From an uncultured Lachnospiraceae bacterium (lineage in GTDB: Bacteria > Bacillota > Clostridia > Lachnospirales > Lachnospiraceae), in NCBI GenBank assembly GCA_947165025.1, contig CAMUYQ010000014.1:1-45753 (forward strand): a stretch of 45,753 bases of DNA, written 5' to 3'. Shown here one piece after another: positions 34,977 through 45,753 of the stretch. How positions within the stretch are numbered: position 1 is the stretch's first letter; each line of letters starts with the position of its first letter. Position numbers and translations under genes: made by a program. The notes under the pieces were generated by a model. It was not told the origin of the DNA and did not search any database. It was given only the letters and a program-made list of their open reading frames with translations.

Positions 34977-36818
34977 TTAATGATAAAATATCTCGTCCCT
35001 GAGGTTTTCAAATTCCTTCATCGAGATCTTTTTTCCTTTAAACTGAAAATCGCTGTTCTCGTCATATCTGTCATCCGGGCTGTCCCAATACTCCGCAGAG
35101 AGCTCTGTTGACTCGACAATATTGCCCTTTCCGTCATATTTATCAAAGCAGTATATCTGCCTTCCCCCGTGTGACGTGTCGCTGTGACATACCCAGACTG
35201 CGTTATCAAACTGCCCATATGACAGTACTCCCGCTGTTCCTTCGCCCTGAGCAAGAACAACAACTTTTCCGTCCCTTGCATCAAGGAACATCCCGCCGTA
35301 TGGACCGTCCAGTATCAGTTCATCTTCACCGTCATTATCAAGATCGAGACGGTCAGAGACCTTATACCTGAGCCATTCTTCATCATTGACCAACAGATTG
35401 GCGATATTAAGCTTTCCATCGCTTCCAAATGCATCTATCTTTCCGGCCACAAAATCATCAAGAAGATCTGACGAATATCCGCTCTGCGGCGCTCCCGACC
35501 AGTCTCCCGAGTACTTGACGTACGCCCCGGGATAGCCGAGTCCCTTAATGCGGTTAAGTTCCGCATTTGCTTCAGACTCTGTAGCGTATATTCCTGCTGT
35601 GACAACGTACCATTTTTCTTTGTTAAGGTTACTCCAGTCACTTGAAATGAATACTCTTCCGTCAAGACCTATCGAAGAGAGCTTGTCCGCACTTTTATTT
35701 GCTTCCTTCTCATCCTTTGATGCAGCGCACCATATACCGTAAAACGGTGTGTTAGCAGGCTGGGATTCCGATACGATATCATCCTGTGCACTCCGGGCAC
35801 CTTCGGCTCTCGTGGTTTCGATCTTTTTAACGCTTATCGAATCTATTACAACTCCATACTCCGAGACAGTGCTCGGCAGAAGCTTATAACAAACGACATA
35901 ATTGAATAATGCCGGGTCGTTAGCCAGTTCTCCCCAGTAGCCGAAGTACATGTCAGCTTCACCGTTATACCCGTCTTCAGTCTCTTCAACACGGACCGCC
36001 TGTGTTTTTATATCAGTTTCGGTCTCTGTCTCATCACTGATCTTTATGCCGTATGTTCCTCTTTCGTTTGTATACTTTACCGCATCAAGGCTCACACACT
36101 GTTCTTTAGTCTGGAATGCATCCCACGAAGCTCCCGTCCCGAACATGTTAAGGCACGCTTTCTCCACGTCTTTTGAAGCAACTGATCTGCCGTGATATCC
36201 AAATCCGTCCGGCCCGACCTCGGCGCTCTTATCAGGCTCAACCTTATCGCCGTGATCAGCAAATGTCTCGTCAATGGTCCCGTCATCCTCACACGCAAGC
36301 GTCGCCGCCCTGATCTTCTCCGCATCGGTCAGCTTGATCTCCATCGTGTCGCCGATGTTTTTCAGCTCTTCATATTCTCTTGCCATAAGTGTTGAGTACA
36401 GATAAGGGCGAAGATTTTCATCCATTTCGGTAAGTACTTTCTTTGCATCATCAACACTTATCTTTGGAGCCGCCTCTGCAGGTTTTTCCTCTTCTGCCGG
36501 TTTTTCTTCCGGCACACTCTCTTCCTCGACCGGCTCTTCGACAGCAGTTTCAACATCTTCTTTCCTAAAGATATCCGTACCGAACCAGAGGGCCGCAAAC
36601 ACACCTCCTCCGACAATGATAAGGGCTCCCGCGATGATCGCTGCGATGACAGCCACCTTCCTGCCTCCCGAGTTCTTTTCAGTCCCCACCGTTTTCGTTT
36701 TAGCTGTCGAGCCTTCATTACTTTTTAGGATCTCTTCCTTCGACGGCTGCTTCGTCCCGCACTTCGGACAGAACAGCACACTTTCCTCAAGTTCTCTTCC
36801 ACATTTGATGCAATACAT
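34977..36818 (-). CDS. Zinc-ribbon membrane protein with SPOR domain
   Basis: A 613-residue protein of unknown function. Domains in order: zinc ribbon with CxxC pairs at Cys3/6 and Cys17/20, a basic linker, one membrane helix (about 54-79), a Pro/Glu-rich spacer (91-118), and a long extracytoplasmic region I cannot name (120-345). A SPOR-like domain follows at about 359-436 (FYGIWCAASKDEKEANKSAD, then WYVVTAGIYATESEANAEL), and a C-terminal region starts with a Ca-binding-like DLDNDGEDE (492-500) as in FG-GAP or EF-loop repeats. SPOR domains bind denuded peptidoglycan, so a cell-wall or division-site role is plausible. GGGAGG precedes the ATG. Confidence 0.85.
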   Translation of the reverse strand: MYCIKCGRELEESVLFCPKCGTKQPSKEEILKSNEGSTAKTKTVGTEKNSGGRKVAVIAAIIAGALIIVGGGVFAALWFGTDIFRKEDVETAVEEPVEEESVPEEKPAEEEKPAEAAPKISVDDAKKVLTEMDENLRPYLYSTLMAREYEELKNIGDTMEIKLTDAEKIRAATLACEDDGTIDETFADHGDKVEPDKSAEVGPDGFGYHGRSVASKDVEKACLNMFGTGASWDAFQTKEQCVSLDAVKYTNERGTYGIKISDETETETDIKTQAVRVEETEDGYNGEADMYFGYWGELANDPALFNYVVCYKLLPSTVSEYGVVIDSISVKKIETTRAEGARSAQDDIVSESQPANTPFYGIWCAASKDEKEANKSADKLSSIGLDGRVFISSDWSNLNKEKWYVVTAGIYATESEANAELNRIKGLGYPGAYVKYSGDWSGAPQSGYSSDLLDDFVAGKIDAFGSDGKLNIANLLVNDEEWLRYKVSDRLDLDNDGEDELILDGPYGGMFLDARDGKVVVLAQGEGTAGVLSYGQFDNAVWVCHSDTSHGGRQIYCFDKYDGKGNIVESTELSAEYWDSPDDRYDENSDFQFKGKKISMKEFENLRDEIFYH

Positions 36819-36904
36819 TTTTTCCTCCCTGAACTAATCTACATCTTCTCTTATCGAATACATCATCATTGCACCCTGATGTGGGTTGATACATACCACT
36901 TCTG

Positions 36905-39139
36905 TTATTCTTTGTCAGTTTCCTTTATCTCTGCAACGGTGTACGTCGGTTTGAAAACCCCGCTTCCGTTCATTTTGTAATAGCCTCTGAATATCCTGTT
37001 TACAGCAGATTCCACTCCTTCACCCTCAGTTCCCAGAAGAATGACAAGGAACTGATAACTGCCGTATCGCGTCAAGACATCAACGTCTCTTATTGTCTGG
37101 CGTATAGCCTGTTCCATATTGTGCATCGAGCTTTCAAGTTCTTCGGCGCCGGGATTTTCACCCTCTTCTGCTTCAAGCGTTATCATTATCAACCTGAACG
37201 AGCAGGAGAAACGTTGTCCCAGATTGGAAATGAATTCATACAGTTTTGTGAACTCTCTGTACTCGAGATTCATTGCCCCGTTGTAACTACCGCTGTTCTT
37301 TATGCTGTTAACAAGCTTACTGACATCCGTGTTCCGGCTTCTGTCGGTTTCCGATTCTTCATTATAGAATGAATATCCGCTCTTTCCGTTCTGTTTGACA
37401 TGATACAACGCTTTGTCAGCCCGGTTATATACGTCGGAATATGTATCATCCGGAGTGCACATTACCATTCCTGCCGAAAGCGATGCAATGCTTATCCGGG
37501 GATCATCCTTCTTGTTCTCTTCAAAATCGCTGATGATACCGCTTACCCGCTCTTCGGCTTCCGTTGCGGTAACATTTATCATAAAGACAAGGAACTCATC
37601 GCCTCCGAGTCTGCAGCACAGATTTCCTTTACCGTTTTCGGTCAGAGTATCACCCATCAGATGAAGGATCCTGTCTCCGGCCTCATGACCGTATGTATCG
37701 TTGATCTTTTTCAGATTATCCACATCAAGGAAGACCAGACATCCTTTCTCATTCTTCATCGATTGAGCGATCGCTATCTCTCCCGCACTCCTGCTCATTA
37801 TACCGGTCGTAATATCCACATCGTCCTTTGCACTCTGTGTCACAAACGATTCAACGACCTCTTTCAGAAGGGCTGATGATGACTGATCCGTCTCCTCATC
37901 AACAACCTTATCTTTAAGGATCTCATCAAGTGCACCTTCATCCCATAACGCTATCATTATGTCGGCATACTCCGGATCAAACTGTTTATTTCTTTCGTTG
38001 ACCAATTCCGATCTGATATGATCTTTGGAGCAGGCTTTTCTGTAGATCCTGTCGGAACTCATTGCATCAAATGCATCCGCAACAGCTACGATCCTTGCCT
38101 CTTCGGAAATCTCTTTTTCCTTTGATCCGAGCGGATAACCCGTTCCGTCATATCTTTCATGATGGCTTCCGGCAACATCATCCGCCATCTTTATCATTGT
38201 CTTTTCCTTAAGTATTTCCCTGCCCATCGTCGTATGGGATTTAATGATGTCGAACTCAACATCCGACAATTCTCTCGGACTGTTAAGTATTGAATCCGGC
38301 ACGCCTATCTTTCCGATATCATGAAGCAGTGCTGCATATTTCAGGTTTTCCCTGCGCTCATCATCCCATCCGAGTCTTTCCGCAATAAGGACTGAATACC
38401 GGCTTACTCTTGAAGAATGTCCTTTTGTATAAGGATCCTTCGCATCGATCGCATTGGCCAGTGCCTGTATCGTCTCAAAGGTCATCTGCTCGATCCGGTG
38501 ATTCTGTTCCTTAACAACAGCTGTCTGACGTTCAACCTCTTCCGTCAGGCGGTTGGTATGATCGATCTCAAACAGGGCGCTCCGATGATACTGGATCATT
38601 GCCATACACGTAAAGATTGAGATGCTCCCATACAGAAGCGGGAAACGTTCCATAAACTCCTGCGTATAATAGGGACTGATACGGGCGTTTAACGGAGTGT
38701 AGAACACAATGATATACACTATCGTATAATACGTTGAAAGGATGATACCGTACTTCACACTGACAAAATAGCTGATACCTATCGGAATGAGCAGGGACCA
38801 TATAATTGCCGATCCCTCACCTGCTCCCGTCAGTACATATACCGTACATGCGATCGCACAGAATATCGTCGGTATCTTTATGGCCAGTTCTCTGTTCTTA
38901 ATTATATATGTGCAATAAGCACAGCCCATACCGGCCAGCAGTGTTATGACTGACGCCGTTATCAGCCATGGGTTGTTTCCGGTTGAAAGATTTAACAGTA
39001 TAAGGGTAATGCTGAGAAGCATGGTTACTACACTCACAAACGTGAGTGCATTCATGTTTGATCTCAGCCTGTCGCCTACATAGATGGACCTGTCCAGATC
39101 TGCCCATATTCTTTTTGCCGAATCAAATATTCGTCTCAT
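36905..39139 (-). CDS. Membrane HD-GYP and GGDEF protein with degenerate second GGDEF
   Basis: A 744-residue signalling protein. About six membrane helices (32-185) and a short coiled coil (195-220) lead to an HD-GYP phosphodiesterase (HD at 273-274 in LLHDIGKIGVPD; GTGYP at 332-336). A GGDEF cyclase follows (CRLGGDEFLVF; motif 512-516). The last ~130 residues look like a second GGDEF fold that lost its motif (DVDVLTRYGSYQFLVIL). No RxxD inhibitory site precedes GGDEF. The protein may both break down and make cyclic di-GMP or a related dinucleotide. HD-GYP before GGDEF is the less common order. Confidence 0.9.
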   Translation of the reverse strand: MRRIFDSAKRIWADLDRSIYVGDRLRSNMNALTFVSVVTMLLSITLILLNLSTGNNPWLITASVITLLAGMGCAYCTYIIKNRELAIKIPTIFCAIACTVYVLTGAGEGSAIIWSLLIPIGISYFVSVKYGIILSTYYTIVYIIVFYTPLNARISPYYTQEFMERFPLLYGSISIFTCMAMIQYHRSALFEIDHTNRLTEEVERQTAVVKEQNHRIEQMTFETIQALANAIDAKDPYTKGHSSRVSRYSVLIAERLGWDDERRENLKYAALLHDIGKIGVPDSILNSPRELSDVEFDIIKSHTTMGREILKEKTMIKMADDVAGSHHERYDGTGYPLGSKEKEISEEARIVAVADAFDAMSSDRIYRKACSKDHIRSELVNERNKQFDPEYADIMIALWDEGALDEILKDKVVDEETDQSSSALLKEVVESFVTQSAKDDVDITTGIMSRSAGEIAIAQSMKNEKGCLVFLDVDNLKKINDTYGHEAGDRILHLMGDTLTENGKGNLCCRLGGDEFLVFMINVTATEAEERVSGIISDFEENKKDDPRISIASLSAGMVMCTPDDTYSDVYNRADKALYHVKQNGKSGYSFYNEESETDRSRNTDVSKLVNSIKNSGSYNGAMNLEYREFTKLYEFISNLGQRFSCSFRLIMITLEAEEGENPGAEELESSMHNMEQAIRQTIRDVDVLTRYGSYQFLVILLGTEGEGVESAVNRIFRGYYKMNGSGVFKPTYTVAEIKETDKE

Positions 39140-39149
39140 ATTCAGTTAT

Positions 39150-39177
39150 TTTATATCCTTTATGTGACAAAGCGCAA
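39150..39177 (-). promoter_or_regulatory. Candidate promoter of the HD-GYP gene
   Basis: Minus strand TTGCGC (39177-39172), 16 nt, TATAAA (39155-39150). The predicted start site is only about four bases before the ATG, and the nearest Shine-Dalgarno-like AAGGA is upstream of it, so this is a weak call. Confidence 0.35.
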
Positions 39178-39200
39178 CTGAAATGCTTGATTTTCATCAT

Positions 39201-39230
39201 AAAAAGTCCCCGATGCACACAACGGGGACC
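39201..39230 (-). terminator. Terminator after the aldo/keto reductase
   Basis: Minus strand GGTCCCCG, a 10-nt loop, CGGGGACTTTTT: an intrinsic terminator 27 bp after the reductase stop. It separates this gene from the HD-GYP gene. Confidence 0.85.
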
Positions 39231-39257
39231 TTTACCGTAATCTCTTCAGTATGATTT

Positions 39258-40136
39258 TCAGATATTGTTCGGATTGCTCTTTCTGTCAGGAATGGCAAAA
39301 TCAGGATGTTCTTCAAGCCATGCAGTCTGCGGCATACAGGACAGCATGGATATATCATCCTCTGACAGTTCAAAATCAAACACATCCATATTGGACTTCA
39401 TATGTTCGGGTGTCGACGCCTTCGGTATCGGCAGGATCCCTTTCTGAAGCAGAAATCTCAGATTGATCTGCTGGATGCTCTTTCCGTATTTCTTCGCAAG
39501 CTTGACAAGGATAGCATTTCCGATCGTTGCATTCTCCCTGCCCCTTCCTAGCGGTGACCAGGCCATAGGGATAACATCATGCTCCTGACAATACGATACA
39601 GCCTTCTCCTGCGAATAGCCCGGATGAAGTTCAAGCTGGTCGACAACAGGTTTGATCTTGCAATTATCCAATATATTTTTCAGATGATGCGGAAGGAAAT
39701 TACTAAGACCCAGCCTCTTGATCTTCCCTTTCTCAACCAATCTTTCCATAGCCTGCCAGGTCTCAATATCAAGCGACTTCCAATCCTCGTCATCGGCCCC
39801 CGTCTGTCTCGGCCAGTGCATCATATATATATCCACATAATCGGTCTGCAGACGGTTCAGAGAGCGTTCAAATGCCTTCTCAACATTTTCCGCACCCATC
39901 TCATCTATCCACATTTTCGTCTCAATGATAACTTCATTCCTTGCGATCCCGCTCTCTTTTAATGCGTTTCCAAGCGACCTCTCCGTCTCATACAGTGATG
40001 CCGTATCAAAGAATCTGTATCCGCATTCAATAGCCTTAAGGATCACATCCTTATTATCGGCAAATTCCTCGTTATACGTTCCAAAACCTATCTTCGGAAG
40101 TGTCGATCCGTCATTAAGTGTGTAGAACTCATTCAT
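39258..40136 (-). CDS. Aldo/keto reductase
   Basis: A 292-residue NADPH-dependent oxidoreductase of the AKR superfamily. The tetrad is visible: Asp and Tyr in GYRFFDTASLYETERSLGNA, Lys in VIIETKMWID, His in DIYMMHWPRQTG. LGLSNFLPHHLKNIL and the cofactor-binding IPKASTPEHMKSNM are also conserved. I choose ATG 40136 (MNEFYTLNDGSTLPKIGFGTYNEE) because GGAGG lies six bases upstream. That start overlaps the end of a truncated transporter reading frame, so the gene was probably once in an operon with that transporter. The physiological substrate is unknown. Confidence 0.94.
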   Translation of the reverse strand: MNEFYTLNDGSTLPKIGFGTYNEEFADNKDVILKAIECGYRFFDTASLYETERSLGNALKESGIARNEVIIETKMWIDEMGAENVEKAFERSLNRLQTDYVDIYMMHWPRQTGADDEDWKSLDIETWQAMERLVEKGKIKRLGLSNFLPHHLKNILDNCKIKPVVDQLELHPGYSQEKAVSYCQEHDVIPMAWSPLGRGRENATIGNAILVKLAKKYGKSIQQINLRFLLQKGILPIPKASTPEHMKSNMDVFDFELSEDDISMLSCMPQTAWLEEHPDFAIPDRKSNPNNI

Positions 40137-40257
40137 AAGCTGCCTCCTCCACTTTAATCCCTTTTTTCCATACACCGAACAGATAGAATGCCCACGTGAT
40201 CAAAAATCCCACGCCGAGTCCGTAATATCCGTTCAGCCATATGATATGTTTTTGAGG
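40129..40257 (-). pseudogene. C-terminal remnant of a membrane transporter gene
   Basis: Between the AAA/DUF4143 gene and the reductase the minus strand reads 42 codons (after a TAA at 40260-40258) ending in TGA: a hydrophobic helix GYYGLGVGFLITWAFYLFGV followed by WKKGIKVEEAAYE. This looks like the last membrane helix and cytoplasmic tail of a sugar-type transporter, but there is no start or upstream part. The stop overlaps the reductase ATG. The 5' part was presumably lost when foreign DNA arrived. The exact transporter family is not determined. Confidence 0.55.
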
Positions 40258-40278
40258 TTACCTGTATAGTTACCTATT

Positions 40279-41634
40279 TCAAAGACACATTGTCATATAA
40301 GGCGGAATGCAGATTATATCATCCTTAATGTCCAGATTTTTAGGATGTATAATATAGGCTCCACCAATTCTTTTCCCATAGACTTCCCTGAATCTGTTCA
40401 ATGACTTTGTCGTATATCTCTTTCCGGATTTTACTTCTATCGGAAAGGCTTTATACTTCAACTTACTGTTATTTGATATCAGAAAGTCGATCTCTATGTC
40501 ATTTCGATGCTTTTCTTCACTGTACCGGGTATAAAAAAATAACTTATGACCATTTGCCGTAAGCATCTGGGCAATCAGGTTCTCATAAAGCATACCCTCG
40601 TTTAATGACAGTTTGTCCTGCAAAATCTGCTTGTACACTTCACTTTCCAGCAATTCATTCTCGTTAAATGCATGACTGAGAAGTAGTCCAGTATCGCACA
40701 TATAGCATTTTAAATATGTTTCCGACAAATTTAATGCCGGTGCTATGCCCGGATTATCAGTTTTTCTGCACTCGTTGACTATCATACTGTCTGTCAGCCA
40801 GAAAAAAGTCTCTGCATACTGCTCGGCAAATGTTCCATCAACAATATTACTGAATACAACCCTTTTTTCATGCTTAGATAAAAGTGCAGGAATCATGTCA
40901 TACAGAGCAATAACTCTTGACCTGTATTTCGCGTTGATTTTCATAATATCCTCGCGATACAGACTCAGGATACCTCTCTTTATACTGTCAACTGCGCCAA
41001 AATCCTTATGCGAATCTATATATGTGGAAACCGCCTGTGGCATCCCACCTACCAGCATATATTCCCTGAACAGTTGCATCGCTTTATCATGGAGGCCTCT
41101 TTCCAAAGGGATAGTTTTTGAAAAACAATCCCGAACATATGATATAAGTATCTCGTCTCCAAGCGCACTGCTGAATTCCTCAAAGTCCATGGGGTACATC
41201 CGCACCGACCTCTCTTCTGAGGGAATCACTATATCTTTCACATTTTCCTTTATGGAAATGAGGGAACCTGTTTCAATATAATCATACCGCCCATCAGCAA
41301 CAAGGTACTTTATCATTTCTCTGGCCGTAGGAAAGCGCTGTACCTCATCAAATATAATTAGGCTTTTTCTTTCCTTCAGTTCCACTCCATATACGTTCTG
41401 GAGCATCATAAAAAGCGTATCCAGATCATTATTAAACCTCACAAAATAGCTTTTTACATCCTCGGATGTCCTTGCAAAGTCTATCAACAGAAAGCTTTCA
41501 TACTCGTTCTGTGCGAATTCCTTTACAATAGTCGATTTCCCGACTCGTCTGGCACCCTCGATCATCAATGCCTCTCTTCCTTCACACGCTTTCCATTCCA
41601 AAAGCCTTTCATATATCTTTCTTTTAAAAAGCAA
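40279..41634 (-). CDS. AAA_14/DUF4143 ATPase
   Basis: A 451-residue P-loop ATPase of a family widespread in accessory regions with no settled role. Walker A GARRVGKST is at 27-35 and Walker B is LIIFDEVQRFP near residue 95. A middle helical and winged part is followed by a C-terminal DUF4143 domain with a PD-(D/E)xK-like nuclease signature (DIEIDFLISN, then FPIEVKSGK). The start is TTG with GGAGGAG upstream. GC is lower than in core genes. It lies between a truncated transporter and a tRNA fragment, consistent with horizontal arrival. Confidence 0.9.
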   Translation of the reverse strand: MLFKRKIYERLLEWKACEGREALMIEGARRVGKSTIVKEFAQNEYESFLLIDFARTSEDVKSYFVRFNNDLDTLFMMLQNVYGVELKERKSLIIFDEVQRFPTAREMIKYLVADGRYDYIETGSLISIKENVKDIVIPSEERSVRMYPMDFEEFSSALGDEILISYVRDCFSKTIPLERGLHDKAMQLFREYMLVGGMPQAVSTYIDSHKDFGAVDSIKRGILSLYREDIMKINAKYRSRVIALYDMIPALLSKHEKRVVFSNIVDGTFAEQYAETFFWLTDSMIVNECRKTDNPGIAPALNLSETYLKCYMCDTGLLLSHAFNENELLESEVYKQILQDKLSLNEGMLYENLIAQMLTANGHKLFFYTRYSEEKHRNDIEIDFLISNNSKLKYKAFPIEVKSGKRYTTKSLNRFREVYGKRIGGAYIIHPKNLDIKDDIICIPPYMTMCL

Positions 41635-41696: not shown

Positions 41697-41821
41697 TGTA
41701 ATTATAGCGTCATCTTTGGTGTTTACGCAGTTTCATTTTGAAAGGATCTTTGATTATGCGCATTTTTGAAGAGTCCTAATCGCAAATTTGAATTGTACCA
41801 CAACAGATCATAAACAACATC

Positions 41822-41851
41822 AAAAAAGGAACCGGATATCCGGTTCCTTTT
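41822..41851 (-). terminator. Terminator downstream of the tRNA-Gln fragment
   Basis: AAAAGGAACCGGAT/ATCCGGTTCCTTTT is a perfect 14-bp dyad (41824-41851), followed by further Ts on the minus strand. It sits three bases past the tRNA 3' end, so it is probably the native terminator of the tRNA-Gln transcript, separated from the tRNA body by the inserted element. Confidence 0.8.
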
Positions 41852-41853
41852 CG

Positions 41854-41900
41854 CAGGGCTAGAAGGATTCGAACCTTCAGATGACGGAGTCAGAGTCCGT
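41854..41900 (-). tRNA. 3' half of tRNA-Gln(CUG), likely attachment-site duplicate
   Basis: The minus strand encodes anticodon stem-loop ACGGA-CTCTGAC-TCCGT (anticodon CTG), a five-base variable loop, a perfect T-arm GAAGG-TTCGAAT-CCTTC and the acceptor 3' strand TAGCCCT plus G; CCA is not encoded. The expected 5' acceptor strand AGGGCTA and a D-arm are missing: upstream is unrelated sequence that leaves only 13 nt for the D-arm. It is therefore a tRNA fragment, as left at one end of an element that integrated into a tRNA 3' end. The intact gene should lie at the far end, to the right of the window. Confidence 0.75.
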
Positions 41901-42123: not shown

Positions 42124-45100
42124 CTATTTCTTTTTTTTATTTCTCTCTCTTCCTAGCAAAATCTTTCTATACTCATTATTAGCACGTTTCGTAGGATAGT
42201 ATAAACTAATATATCTTTGTAGTTCTTTTTCACTTAATTTCTCAGAAGAAATGAGATATCGACTTAATACGCGCATCTTCATATAGTTAAGTATTGGTGT
42301 ATTTAAACTCTCTTTATGATTGTTTAAATACTTGTCAAATTCTCCCTTATTATCACATTTTGCATACGCCATCATCATTTGAATAAAGTTACTAGGATTA
42401 TCCTCATCAGAAGAATACTTTTCTAAATACTTTATTGTATGTTTTCTTATACCCTCTTCAACTGGAATATTCAACAAATCCAAATAAAGCGACAGGGATT
42501 CTATTTGAAGATAGAGTAACATATCTTTTTCGTTTACTCTATCCCAATCCTTTGGCTTAAGATATACATTTCTATAACTATCTAGAAGATATTTGACGAT
42601 ATCATCCTTTTCTTTATCAACCTGTATGGCCCACAAGTAAAATATCATAGACGGTAACTGTTGCATAATACCGACAACCATTTCTTTGTCTCTCTTGTCC
42701 ATTCTATGTTCAAATCCCGGCAAGCACTTAGAAACAATGCTCAATAGTGTCATCCCGCGTATTATTTGATTAACCACAGCATCAACATCCTCCAAATCAT
42801 CTGCAAAATAATCACATACCATGATCTGTTCTTTTTCGTATTCTTCTAGTTCTCGTTTATCCATATGGTTTTCTTTTTCGCTCTGATCTATTTTATCAGA
42901 TGGCTTTGGGGGGTCTATAGGCATGTTTGTATTTATCTTATTTAAATATCCAATGTTTGTTTTTTTCGGGTTAAACGAACCCCATCCTTGAGTATACTTT
43001 TGTGCACTTTCTATTATTTTTCTAATCATAAATAAACTGTCCGTTAGGTATGTCACAAACAGTATAACATTTGAGTGAACCCCATACTTAATATACTTTG
43101 TCAAGTACTCCAAATCAGAATCATCTAGGTTATCGTTCCATAACCGAATGATTTGACGCGCTACAAAATACGACAAAACATTTTTATTACAAAATCGATA
43201 TTCCGATCCTTTATAATGCATTAATATTTTTGATGCAACGCAATCGTTTATAAGCGACGAGCACGATACATCATCATCATGAACCTCGTTGTATTCGCTA
43301 ACAAGATCGAAAATTGCATTCTCTGGAATATGGTTGATTTGCTTCTTAAAACTCCAATATGCAATTTGATCTAGCAAGACAAATACCTTCTCAACTGTGA
43401 TTTTAGGCGATACTCTAAGCAATCGATTAACTAAATTACTTTCAAAAACCTTACTAAAAACATTTCCTTCAGTTGAATAACCATCTTTAAAGTTTTTAAG
43501 GTAATACTGCGTGAACTGAATAACAAAGCACGGATTCATAGAATAGAATTTCCGCTGTTTTTTCAGTGCATTTGATATTCTTTCAACTATTTCATCATTT
43601 TCTTTTTCATCGGTTATACACACTATTTTATTTATCAGTTTTTTTCTTCTATCAAGTATCATTGGCATAATCCGATATCTTTTATACTGATTCATCTCAA
43701 TATTCTGCTTTATTCTCTCCGTTAAATCTAATTCAATAACCTCTCCTGTAGAATACACTATCACTCCAAAAAAATCTCTTAAATAGTCTAAAACATTTCC
43801 AATTTTCGTCTTTTCAATGTCATCTATATTATCAATCAAAAATACTTTTTTATATTTTGGCATTTGTGAAAAAGTTTCATATTCGCCATTTATGTCATCA
43901 TAATTCTCTCTGAAAACCTGTGGAATCAGCTTGTTTAGGCTTTGTATATTAGCATTTGCTATATCACAGTACAAACATACATATCCCCTTCTTTGCAATT
44001 CTGTATATACTCTTTTTAACAATACTGTCTTGCCGAAATTCTCACCTCCAACAATAGATACTCTTTTGTATTCAATTATTCTATCCAAGAACACTTCCTC
44101 ATCTGAGATCACAGTAGATTCTTTTGTTGAGTATTCATCAATTTCTTCCATATTAGGAAAAACAAAATAATCAAATACACATCCCGGAAGGTCAGTAATT
44201 GGATCATTATATAACAAATTTTCAAATTCTTTACTAAAACAGAATTTGTTATTATCGCTTTTATGACAGATTCTGTAACACTCATTTTTATTTATATCAT
44301 ACCGTGCCTTTGCCTCATTCCAAACATACTGCCTAGAGTTTAATTCATTCTGTTCTAAATCAATCGTATCAATATAGAACTGGCTTCTGCTCCAGTCACC
44401 CTTATCACTTAACTCTCCACCATTTAGATAAATATACTCATTATTACCGCACTTTATTACTTGCGTCTTCATCTCATGTTCATGTCCGCAAATAACAATA
44501 TGACACTTTCTCTGTATTATTTGTTCAATTCTGTTCTTTATTCTGTCATTAAACCAATGATGTGCATGATGCATTACTAGAATATTAACATCGCCATCCA
44601 GATTCTTTTCAATGCTTACTAATTCTGATTCAGGCAAGTAATGTAATCCTTTATCTTCATCAAGAGTGGAGAAAATAGCCGTATTAAGAAGACATGTGAC
44701 AATTCTTTTTTCTTGTACAGTCTGTTGATAAAAATTACATATCTTTTCATCGTTTTGAATTCTTTTTATTCCATTTGAAAAATTAAAATAATGTCTTTGC
44801 TTACATAATTCATTTTCTATATCACCATCTGTTACTCCATCACGAATAATACTCTGTATGGCCTTGTGACCTTTATCGTTTGTTAAATCCACGTCATGAT
44901 TACCAGGAACAACTAAAACATCAACACTTTTTAGTTTGAAAAATTTCATAATACGTTTTCTTAAGCACTGTATCATTTCGTATGCACTATCAAACTGTTC
45001 ATGTTTCCCTTGATCAGTTATATCACCAGATATAACGATACATAATCGATCAATATGATCAACTGTATTAAGAGTATCTGCTATTTTTTCAATGTTCTGT

Positions 45101-45162
45101 ATTGAAACATCTTTGTCATTTCGAATATGAATATCACTCAAATGTAAGTATACTAATTTCAT
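42124..45162 (-). CDS. Calcineurin-like phosphoesterase fused to P-loop NTPase (STAND-like, candidate defence protein)
   Basis: A 1012-residue protein. Residues 1-265 form a metallophosphoesterase with all five motifs: SDIH (9-12), GDITD (46-50), GNHD (87-90), HHAHH (198-202) and GHEHE (226-230). After a linker, a P-loop NTPase has Walker A GGENFGKT (372-379) and Walker B VFLIDNIDD (440-448), then helical and winged-helix-like stretches. The last ~350 residues are mostly helical, with a charged linker near 730-760, and have no family I know. Effector-NTPase-helical sensor order fits STAND conflict proteins. The start at 45162 has GAGGG nine bases upstream; an ATG at 45192 is possible. It is very AT-rich, within the tRNA-Gln element. 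Confidence 0.85.
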   Translation of the reverse strand: MKLVYLHLSDIHIRNDKDVSIQNIEKIADTLNTVDHIDRLCIVISGDITDQGKHEQFDSAYEMIQCLRKRIMKFFKLKSVDVLVVPGNHDVDLTNDKGHKAIQSIIRDGVTDGDIENELCKQRHYFNFSNGIKRIQNDEKICNFYQQTVQEKRIVTCLLNTAIFSTLDEDKGLHYLPESELVSIEKNLDGDVNILVMHHAHHWFNDRIKNRIEQIIQRKCHIVICGHEHEMKTQVIKCGNNEYIYLNGGELSDKGDWSRSQFYIDTIDLEQNELNSRQYVWNEAKARYDINKNECYRICHKSDNNKFCFSKEFENLLYNDPITDLPGCVFDYFVFPNMEEIDEYSTKESTVISDEEVFLDRIIEYKRVSIVGGENFGKTVLLKRVYTELQRRGYVCLYCDIANANIQSLNKLIPQVFRENYDDINGEYETFSQMPKYKKVFLIDNIDDIEKTKIGNVLDYLRDFFGVIVYSTGEVIELDLTERIKQNIEMNQYKRYRIMPMILDRRKKLINKIVCITDEKENDEIVERISNALKKQRKFYSMNPCFVIQFTQYYLKNFKDGYSTEGNVFSKVFESNLVNRLLRVSPKITVEKVFVLLDQIAYWSFKKQINHIPENAIFDLVSEYNEVHDDDVSCSSLINDCVASKILMHYKGSEYRFCNKNVLSYFVARQIIRLWNDNLDDSDLEYLTKYIKYGVHSNVILFVTYLTDSLFMIRKIIESAQKYTQGWGSFNPKKTNIGYLNKINTNMPIDPPKPSDKIDQSEKENHMDKRELEEYEKEQIMVCDYFADDLEDVDAVVNQIIRGMTLLSIVSKCLPGFEHRMDKRDKEMVVGIMQQLPSMIFYLWAIQVDKEKDDIVKYLLDSYRNVYLKPKDWDRVNEKDMLLYLQIESLSLYLDLLNIPVEEGIRKHTIKYLEKYSSDEDNPSNFIQMMMAYAKCDNKGEFDKYLNNHKESLNTPILNYMKMRVLSRYLISSEKLSEKELQRYISLYYPTKRANNEYRKILLGRERNKKKK

Positions 45163-45220
45163 TATTTCTAGCCCTCTAGTTCTCTTATACACAGATTATT
45201 CTTCCAATCTATACGGATAT

Positions 45221-45753
45221 CTATTCCGTTCTATTTTTCGTCTTCCAATAGCCTACTTTATTGGATCCTTCTCTTTCTACTAATTTTTTTCTCATCAATG
45301 ATGAAATAGTTCTCTGCACAGTCTTCTCAGATTTTCCTATCCGAATCGCCATTTCTGCTTTAGAGATACCCAAATTCTCATTTATAAGATTATAAATAAT
45401 CTGCTCCTGTTCAGATAATTCCACATCTATCTGGACATTTAACTGGACATTTGTCCTAATAAACTCAAAGAAAAACCCGTAGGCTTCTTTTCTAAAATCC
45501 CAAGAAACATTTTGTTTTTTACAATACTCGTTTACCCTCTGAAACCCTGTCCCCGATTTTTCAACATCTTTACTCCTAAAAAGGACATCTAGAATCAATC
45601 TATTTCTCTTATATGATGGAAGATTCCTGGAAATAAAGTCCAGCGGCGTTAACCCATCCGGAAAAGTTCCCGGATTATACACTTCTATCTTTCCCGGGTG
45701 AATCCCTACTTCTATTTCAGGAAGCGTTTCATAATCCGCATGCGCAAAAGCAT
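45221..45753 (-). CDS. RecG-like/AlbA_2-type ATP-binding protein, C-terminal part
   Basis: A reading frame entering from the right window edge; 176 codons to the stop are visible. The segment IEVGIHPGKIEVYNPGTFPD, then LPSYKRNRLILDVLFR and EKSGTGFQRVNEYC, is the C-terminal GHKL-like ATP-binding region of proteins annotated as AlbA_2/Schlafen or RecG-like transcriptional regulators (COG2865). A winged helix-turn-helix follows (SEQEQIIYNLINENLGISKA, then KTVQRTISSLMRKKL). It precedes the phosphoesterase-NTPase gene by 58 bp, so they may be co-transcribed. The N-terminal AlbA_2 domain, if present, is outside the window. Confidence 0.82.
   Translation of the reverse strand, partial: AFAHADYETLPEIEVGIHPGKIEVYNPGTFPDGLTPLDFISRNLPSYKRNRLILDVLFRSKDVEKSGTGFQRVNEYCKKQNVSWDFRKEAYGFFFEFIRTNVQLNVQIDVELSEQEQIIYNLINENLGISKAEMAIRIGKSEKTVQRTISSLMRKKLVEREGSNKVGYWKTKNRTE

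What the first reader, a model, noticed from the sequence alone, without database searches (positions are those of the whole stretch)
42124..45753. Phosphoesterase-NTPase fusion inside a tRNA-Gln element: candidate new anti-phage STAND-like system
Seen: one polypeptide with an intact metallophosphoesterase active site (all five metal-ligand motifs), an intact P-loop with Walker B, and a long helical C-terminus, in very AT-rich DNA just inside a presumed integrative element. Known: STAND/NACHT-type bacterial proteins (for example Avs) pair a toxic effector domain with an NTPase oligomerisation module and a C-terminal sensor, and calcineurin-like phosphoesterases occur as effectors in conflict systems. 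Inference: this is a triggered nuclease or phosphodiesterase that acts on nucleic acid or a nucleotide during infection. I cannot match it to a named system.
Basis: partly seen in the sequence, partly recalled or inferred. Interest (0 to 1): 0.85.

Follow-up and report, generated by a model that had tools for sequence, protein, structure and literature searches.

The report
Mobile phosphoesterase-NACHT anti-phage protein (DS-8 relative)
A bacterium carries, on a mobile DNA element parked in a tRNA gene, a large protein that joins a phosphate-cutting enzyme to a switch resembling human immune receptors; it is a distant relative of a recently described anti-phage protein, so it is probably a known kind of defence in a new branch.

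Summary
The protein is real: window 42124-45162 (-), 1012 aa, with all metal-ligand motifs of a calcineurin-type phosphoesterase (MPP), intact Walker A/B and an all-helical C-terminus. The tRNA-Gln element is real but mis-stated: the window holds only its 3' repeat (41818-41900); the complete tRNA-Gln, integrase, relaxase, Lamassu-like and OLD-like genes lie on another contig.

"Cannot match it to a named system" no longer holds. NCBIfam DS8_antiphage aligns over model positions 1-990 of 994 (E 2e-118), at 396 bits, below its 790-bit cut-off. DS-8 (Science 2026) is an E. coli MPP-NACHT protein whose defence needs both domains. The window protein belongs to a separate, mostly clostridial clade, several of whose genes lie beside BREX, restriction or recombinase genes or in prophages.

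The model resembles NLRC4/NAIP/NOD2 plus MPP enzymes. Its NACHT and C-terminus are homologous to those of plasmid TIR-NACHT proteins, so MPP and TIR look exchangeable on one chassis. Best reading: a triggered STAND-type defence whose MPP cuts a nucleotide-like molecule; the substrate is unknown and a nuclease is not excluded. New member of a known kind.

The parts
42124..45162 (-). MPP-NACHT-helical protein, 1012 aa, DS-8-like (stop codon included)
44263..45162 (-). metallophosphoesterase effector domain, residues 1-300
   Evidence: Pfam PF00149 E 1.1e-10; all motifs; fold
44155..44172 (-). junction motif DYFVFP (residues 331-336), lying just ahead of the NTPase; aligned with LDLFVFPD of the Vibrio TIR-NACHT protein
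43123..44154 (-). NACHT-type NTPase plus winged helix, residues 337-680; Walker A at 44026-44049
42127..43095 (-). all-helical C-terminal domain, residues 690-1012, putative sensor
   Evidence: no solved structure resembles it at E 0.001 or better
45221..45751 (-). 3' part of a RecG/AlbA_2-type regulator (HATPase_c_4 and a winged-helix end; the AlbA_2 half is not in the window), cut by the contig end, 58 bases upstream of the ATG, same strand
41818..41900 (-). att repeat: 3' part of tRNA-Gln(CTG) and its terminator, the chromosomal boundary of the element

Best explanation
A single-protein, DS-8-type anti-phage defence carried as cargo at the right end of a tRNA-Gln integrative mobilisable element. 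The helical C-terminus senses an infection cue, directly or through a host protein (inferred). The NACHT module, on ATP binding, oligomerises (inferred from NLR/STAND proteins). This activates the N-terminal two-metal phosphoesterase, which hydrolyses a nucleotide-type phosphodiester or pyrophosphate and so stops growth or phage replication (inferred; small molecule rather than DNA mildly favoured). Shown here: domain make-up, intact active sites, homology over all three domains to a validated anti-phage family, a mobile and defence-bearing element, and a homologous NACHT plus C-terminus that carries TIR instead of MPP elsewhere. The confidence given is for the triggered DS-8-type defence, not for the substrate.
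For: DS8_antiphage HMM over residues 7-986 / model 1-990, E 2.2e-118. DS-8 mutants in either the MPP or the NACHT domain lose defence (PMC13092281, passages read). 12 of 12 rows keep the active sites. Fold matches: YydB, NLRC4, NLRP3, NOD2, NAIP5, GpdQ, Rv0805, SMPDL3A/B. Element: integrase, NikA/MobC, relaxase, Lamassu-like LmuB and LmuC, OLD/ATPase-Toprim-like gene. Site supported in congeners. Relatives next to PglX-BrxL, Type IIG RM and a Type IV restriction enzyme, serine recombinases, and in prophages. C-terminal homology to TIR-NACHT proteins: prob 96.3, E 1.7e-9; reversed and five column-shuffled controls all below 1.
Against: Score is half the curated equivalog cut-off (396 of 790 bits). 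Identity to the four DS-8-like rows is 18-20% and 7-13% in the C-terminus; only one of those four rows (L012) passes the cut-off itself. No member of the window clade has been tested against phage as far as my searches show. Of 17 loci (duplicates L042 and L046 set aside) 7 have a defence or mobility neighbour confirmed by HMM; L032 has one by eye only, L037 (Fic) and L038 (AlbA_2) are weaker, and 7 (L036, L040, L041, L043, L044, L045, L079) have none confirmed. C9 and C14 are not physically linked in the assembly. The substrate is not known even for DS-8.
Confidence: 0.8

Rival explanations
1. The MPP domain is a nuclease (Mre11/SbcD-like) that degrades phage or host DNA after NACHT activation.
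For: By Foldseek E-value Mre11 (best 1.6e-6) ranks above Rv0805 (6.5e-6) and SMPDL3A (7.1e-6), though below GpdQ (1.1e-7). PADLOC labels an MPP-family model 'Effector, Endonuclease'; it matches 1 of 16 clade members (5e-19) and L014 and L048.
Against: In the profile search against PDB sequences the MPP-region matches among the 60 shown are GpdQ, LMO2642 and Rv0805/Icc; no Mre11 is listed. The Mre11 superpositions have rmsd of 22-29 A, and TM normalised to the target is 0.27-0.37 against 0.67 for Rv0805 and 0.54-0.57 for GpdQ, but that measure is confounded by target length. The doubled histidine 'MHH' recalls cyclic-nucleotide PDE/GpdQ enzymes (recalled, not tested).
Confidence: 0.3
2. The MPP degrades a signalling cyclic nucleotide (SMPDL3A-like), as the DS-8 authors suggest, rather than depleting a bulk metabolite.
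For: SMPDL3A/B and Rv0805 are fold matches; DS-8 authors' reading.
Against: The same chassis carries TIR, which in other systems depletes NAD+. SMPDL3A/B are only some of many MPP matches (E 5.7e-6 to 2e-5), behind YydB and GpdQ. No cyclase was among the neighbour genes scanned, but only selected neighbours were scanned.
Confidence: 0.3
3. Not defence: a regulator or repair enzyme of the host or element.
For: No infection data for this clade; a RecG/AlbA_2-type regulator gene is adjacent.
Against: Very patchy (3 of 295 genomes in the order, itself included; chassis in 5 of 397 in the family, itself included); mobile contexts; homology to DS-8 over the full length.
Confidence: 0.1

Closest known systems
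DS-8 (DeWeirdt, Mahoney & Laub, Science 2026; NCBIfam NF053861)
   Same: MPP, NACHT and C-terminal domain in the same order; all three parts align or are homologous; single protein; intact active sites
   Different: 396 bits against the 790-bit cut-off; 18-20% identity to four DS-8-like rows, of which one passes the cut-off; separate clade in the tree; mostly clostridial; untested. The E. coli DS-8 sequence itself was not fetched.
PADLOC PDC-S60 (PDLC05050, PDLC05051)
   Same: 14 of 16 clade members match PDLC05051, 2 match PDLC05050
   Different: a candidate family without a mechanism in the library; the match covers residues 6-745 only for the window protein
TIR-NACHT proteins on plasmids (Vibrio L082, Streptococcus L083, Lactococcus L085)
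   Same: NACHT and C-terminal domain (hhalign 99.8, E 1.8e-30)
   Different: TIR instead of MPP at the N-terminus
bNACHT proteins / NLRs (bNACHT25; NLRC4, NAIP)
   Same: effector-NACHT-sensor logic (PMC12169576, passages); NACHT fold
   Different: other effectors and sensors; no Pfam NACHT-family model among the matches at E up to 1
DS-9A and YydB-like MPP proteins
   Same: MPP domain (NF053862 E 1.4e-11; 9a6c_B top fold match)
   Different: no NACHT; paired with a HAD phosphatase (DS-9) or, in L048, near a DUF2326 ATPase
Avs (AVAST)
   Same: STAND logic
   Different: no Avs model among the PADLOC matches; different effector (recalled)

Membership tests
DS-8 (NF053861) | full-length alignment to the family model | tested here: met
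   residues 7-986, model 1-990/994, E 2.2e-118
DS-8 (NF053861) | curated equivalog cut-off, 790 bits | tested here: not met
   396.5 bits; it is a relative, not a certified equivalog
DS-8 (NF053861) | intact MPP metal ligands and NACHT Walker motifs | tested here: met
DS-8 (NF053861) | homologous C-terminal domain | tested here: met
   hhalign prob 98.1, E 7.7e-14 against four DS-8-like rows, one of which passes the cut-off
DS-8 (NF053861) | anti-phage activity that needs both domains | not testable with these tools
   needs infection assays
PADLOC PDC-S60 | match to the candidate models | tested here: inconclusive
   PDLC05051 E 7.3e-25 but only residues 6-745; no cut-off is given
NACHT/STAND NTPases | Walker A/B and NACHT-type fold | tested here: met
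   motifs; Foldseek NLRC4 6.4e-10, NLRP3, NOD2, NAIP5; ORC/Cdc6 AAA+ proteins also match, from 7.6e-7
NACHT/STAND NTPases | curated Pfam STAND cut-offs | tested here: not met
   nSTAND3 21.4 of 27.2 bits, nSTAND_NTPase4 21.9 of 27
Avs (AVAST) | match to Avs models | tested here: not met
   none among matches at E up to 1; that the library holds Avs models is recalled
Mre11/SbcD nucleases | nuclease activity and Mre11-type DNA-binding cap | not testable with these tools
   fold similarity of the MPP part only; no Mre11 among the 60 PDB sequence matches shown

The most novel reading that the evidence does not exclude
One NACHT-plus-sensor chassis is fitted alternately with TIR or with a metallophosphoesterase, implying that the MPP, like TIR, is a metabolite-depleting effector: it would cleave a dinucleotide or nucleotide pool (for example NAD+ at its pyrophosphate, or ATP) when the shared sensor is triggered. 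A third clade keeps the MPP-NACHT part with a C-terminus not detectably related in profile comparison, so both ends would be modular.
Probability: 0.3. Interest if true: 0.7.

Novelty: new member of a known kind. Interest (0 to 1): 0.45.

Why it matters
It extends the DS-8 type to an untested, mostly clostridial clade on integrative elements and prophages. It also makes the open question of DS-8 (what does the phosphoesterase cut, and what is sensed?) more tractable: TIR-NACHT proteins share the sensor, and NADase activity is easy to assay, so triggers might be found with the TIR version and carried over to the MPP version.

Tried and rejected
Rejected or empty: Avs membership; a complete tRNA in the window; relatives in phage records (no match for the window protein, or for the DS-8 homologue L012); plasmid records with full-length relatives of the window protein (13 records match, 0 cover 80% of it); a PDB relative by sequence (RecA fusions by the P-loop and one chance ribosomal match; profile search: RecA fusions, then LMO2642 and GpdQ at about 2e-4, then mostly P-loop matches); a solved fold for the C-terminus (best E 0.31, none at or below 0.001). 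BFVD search: NLR-, RFC- and MPP-like matches among the 50 shown, none covering the whole protein well (TM normalised to query at most 0.26). Promoter scan at chance level (20 found, 21.7 expected).

Literature (one library of open PMC papers): MPP or calcineurin-like terms with STAND/NACHT and phage gave 0 papers; 'DefensePredictor' gave 10; two of 'DS-8', 'metallophosphatase', 'phage defense' gave 2; 'NACHT' with 'metallophosphatase' gave the DefensePredictor paper and one unrelated paper. YydB/YydD gave 3 papers, listing only. Searches gave listings; of those I read passages of PMC12169576 only. Supplements were not read.

Results against or blurring my reading: the DS-8 model runs to position 977/980 in third-clade members L014 and L025, so their C-termini may be remotely related although hhalign found nothing. 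The DS-8 model also rings, below cut-off, in 1 of 14 control genomes, B. subtilis. Window genes at 34977-41634 (four queried) were not found at the right edge in the two congeners, so the flank next to the att site is not conserved, though genes from about 31.6 kb downwards are. The tree warns of long branches (window, L014, L023) and odd composition (L026, L030, L036).

Rows dropped: the tree left out the partial L038 and L043 and identical copies; A4 left out L032 (split frame), L042 and L046 (copies of L033). Neighbour proteins for HMM scans were picked by eye from the ORF list (5, of which 4 matched; 10, of which 9 matched), so those contexts are examples, not an enrichment test; no random-gene control was run.
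Full report
WHAT IS THERE. Window 42124-45162 (-) is one open frame of 1012 aa from an ATG. The MPP motifs D10xH12, G46D47, G87NHD90, H198H199 and G226HEH229, the Walker A GGENFGKT at 372 and the Walker B VFLIDN at 440 are all present. The stop-free run of 1023 codons compares with at most 165 in 200 base shuffles. In 12 aligned rows (the window and 11 relatives at 15-26% identity to it) the MPP ligands, Walker A G372, G377 and K378, and D444 are identical in 12 of 12, so the sites are under selection.

THE ELEMENT. ARAGORN finds no tRNA in the window. Window 41851-41900 is identical to G000:C9:109205-109254, inside and just past a complete tRNA-Gln(CTG) at C9:109180-109252; the repeat extends to 83 bp at 98.8% (41818-41900). 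Beyond that tRNA, C9 runs about 19 kb to its end. HMM scans name there an AlbA_2 regulator, an OLD/ATPase-Toprim-like gene, Lamassu-like LmuC and LmuB (PADLOC 1.3e-24, 7.6e-92), a tyrosine integrase, an actin-like gene, NikA/MobC, a relaxase and AgrB; an Xre-like regulator and a sensor kinase with its regulator are seen by eye. In 14 of 37 genomes of the genus, its own included, a relative of the GH25 gene beside the tRNA is found. Six of those loci (own, plus five at 78-86%) were scanned for tRNAs, and tRNA-Gln is present in 5 of 6; L059 ends early. In G1090 and G1066, element-type genes lie between tRNA-Gln and a further att repeat, and beyond it come window chromosomal genes (from about 31.6 kb or 30.1 kb downwards) in the window's order. 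The four queried window genes between 34977 and 41634 were not found there, so the immediate flank differs. The likeliest reading is that C9's right end and the window's right end are two parts of one integrative mobilisable element of at least about 23 kb; the assembly does not show the join. G864 carries a near-identical backbone (integrase 98.6%) with different cargo behind AlbA_2: SIR2_2, SMEK_N and DUF2326 genes.

WHAT FAMILY. Pfam gives calcineurin-like phosphoesterase (E 1.1e-10) with two STAND models below their cut-offs. NCBIfam gives DS8_antiphage, E 2.2e-118, residues 7-986, 396.5 bits against a cut-off of 790. DS-8 is described in PMC13092281 (abstract, introduction, passages and discussion seen): a one-protein system with MPP and NACHT, in which mutation of either of two predicted MPP catalytic residues or of a NACHT residue ablates defence; its substrate is unknown and it resembles human SMPDL3A. 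All 16 members of the window-clade alignment match the DS-8 model (best E 6.9e-120), and 14 of 16 match PADLOC PDLC05051 (PDC-S60). In a 23-row tree the window clade (15 rows, 100/99) is separate from four DS-8-like rows (99/99; L012 at 1116 bits, the others at 693-750 bits, below the cut-off) and from a third clade (4 rows, 100/100). The window pairs with the BREX-linked L030 (95/95), but it has a long branch and the tree tool warns that such places are unsure.

DISTRIBUTION AND CONTEXT. The window protein finds relatives in 3 of 295 genomes of the order, itself included. The DS-8 model finds 9 of 398 in the phylum and 10 of 397 in the family at E 1e-20, itself included, several of them in the MPP part only. 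The chassis (NACHT plus C-terminus) finds 5 of 397, itself included. A named-genome scan gave 16 loci: 14 with clostridial titles (one the isolate Tissierella creatinophila, the rest MAGs), one Treponema MAG and one Prevotella MAG. Counting 17 loci (those 16 without L042, plus L047 and L079): HMM-confirmed neighbours are PglX and BrxL directly upstream and an integrase downstream in L030; Type IIG RM upstream in L035; Type IV restriction enzyme downstream in L039; serine recombinases in L031 and L034; holin and endolysin in L033; endolysin and integrase in L047. Weaker: AlbA_2 in L038, Fic near L037; a recombinase by eye in L032. Nothing confirmed in L036, L040, L041, L043, L044, L045 and L079. 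A cut-off-passing DS-8 homologue on a Paenisporosarcina plasmid lies after genes annotated as restriction-modification and near one annotated as a Pycsar effector.

FOLD. The AlphaFold2 model (16-row alignment) has mean pLDDT 83.0 and pTM 0.62. PDB matches: YydB of B. subtilis (3.8e-13), NLRC4 (6.4e-10), NLRP3, NOD2 and NAIP5, with ORC/Cdc6 proteins from 7.6e-7; for the MPP GpdQ (1.1e-7), Mre11 (1.6e-6), SMPDL3B (5.7e-6), Rv0805 (6.5e-6) and SMPDL3A (7.1e-6). The C-terminal domain alone (pLDDT 79.7, pTM 0.80) is all-helical and matches no solved structure (best E 0.31). So a helical sensor-like domain is consistent with the model, but a known sensor fold is not shown.

MODULARITY. A tblastn with the DS-8 homologue L012 hit plasmid TIR proteins over its NACHT and C-terminal part (Vibrio, E 2e-70). 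TIR_2 is confirmed in 3 of 3, and the DS-8 model matches all three from position 299-310 to its end, that is, from about the end of the MPP domain. The window clade's own NACHT plus C-terminus, cut by me at residue 330, against these TIR proteins gives hhalign probability 99.8, E 1.8e-30, 608 columns. Split by domain, the C-terminus alone gives 96.3 / 1.7e-9, and against the four DS-8-like rows 98.1 / 7.7e-14. Controls: reversed 0.9, five column shuffles 0.1-0.3, C-terminus against NACHT 0.1. The third clade's NACHT matches (97.0) but its C-terminus does not (0.1); against this, the DS-8 HMM alignment of L014 and L025 runs to position 977/980, so remote kinship is not excluded. Effector and probably sensor are thus separately exchangeable. 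PADLOC's PDC-S60 model PDLC05050 matches both TIR and MPP forms over the shared part, so the grouping appears to have been made already; the main text of the DS-8 paper does not contain the word TIR.

MECHANISM. Shown: domains, intact sites, homology, context, exchange of effector. Inferred: sensing by the C-terminus, ATP-dependent oligomerisation, release of MPP activity, harm to the infected cell. For the substrate I mildly favour a nucleotide-type small molecule over DNA: the profile search of PDB sequences lists GpdQ, LMO2642 and Rv0805/Icc for the MPP part and no Mre11 among the 60 shown, and TIR, an NADase in other systems, is its alternative. Foldseek E-values do not separate the two. 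This is weak evidence.

VERDICT. A well-supported distant member of the DS-8/PDC-S60 kind of anti-phage MPP-NACHT protein, below the curated DS-8 equivalog cut-off, not a new system.

Noticed in passing
G000:C9:109253-128440 (L010, L011): The other part of the element carries Lamassu-like LmuB/LmuC, an OLD/retron I-B-like ATPase-Toprim gene, and AgrB with a sensor kinase and regulator (the last two by eye): a mobilisable defence element with a possible quorum-sensing module.
   Followed up: partly
L069 (G864, same genus): Near-identical element backbone at the same tRNA-Gln but with SIR2_2, SMEK_N and DUF2326 genes in the cargo slot: defence-type cargo is swapped on one backbone.
   Followed up: partly
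L068/L072 (G1090, same genus): Three att copies in about 14 kb from tRNA-Gln onwards, suggesting two elements in tandem at this hotspot.
   Followed up: no
L048:1800-5321 (viral contig): A free-standing MPP protein (485 aa) followed, after a 110-aa ORF, by a DUF2326 ATPase, resembling the B. subtilis YydB-YydD pair: the same kind of MPP with another partner.
   Followed up: partly
L033, L042, L046: What looks by eye like one prophage with the MPP-NACHT gene just behind its lysis genes, in two genomes with different genes downstream and in a viral contig.
   Followed up: no
window 40279-41634 (-): AAA_14/DUF4143 ATPase on the chromosomal side of the att site, strong match to PADLOC PDC-S01 (5.3e-106); not found at the site in two congeners; meaning unclear.
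   Followed up: no
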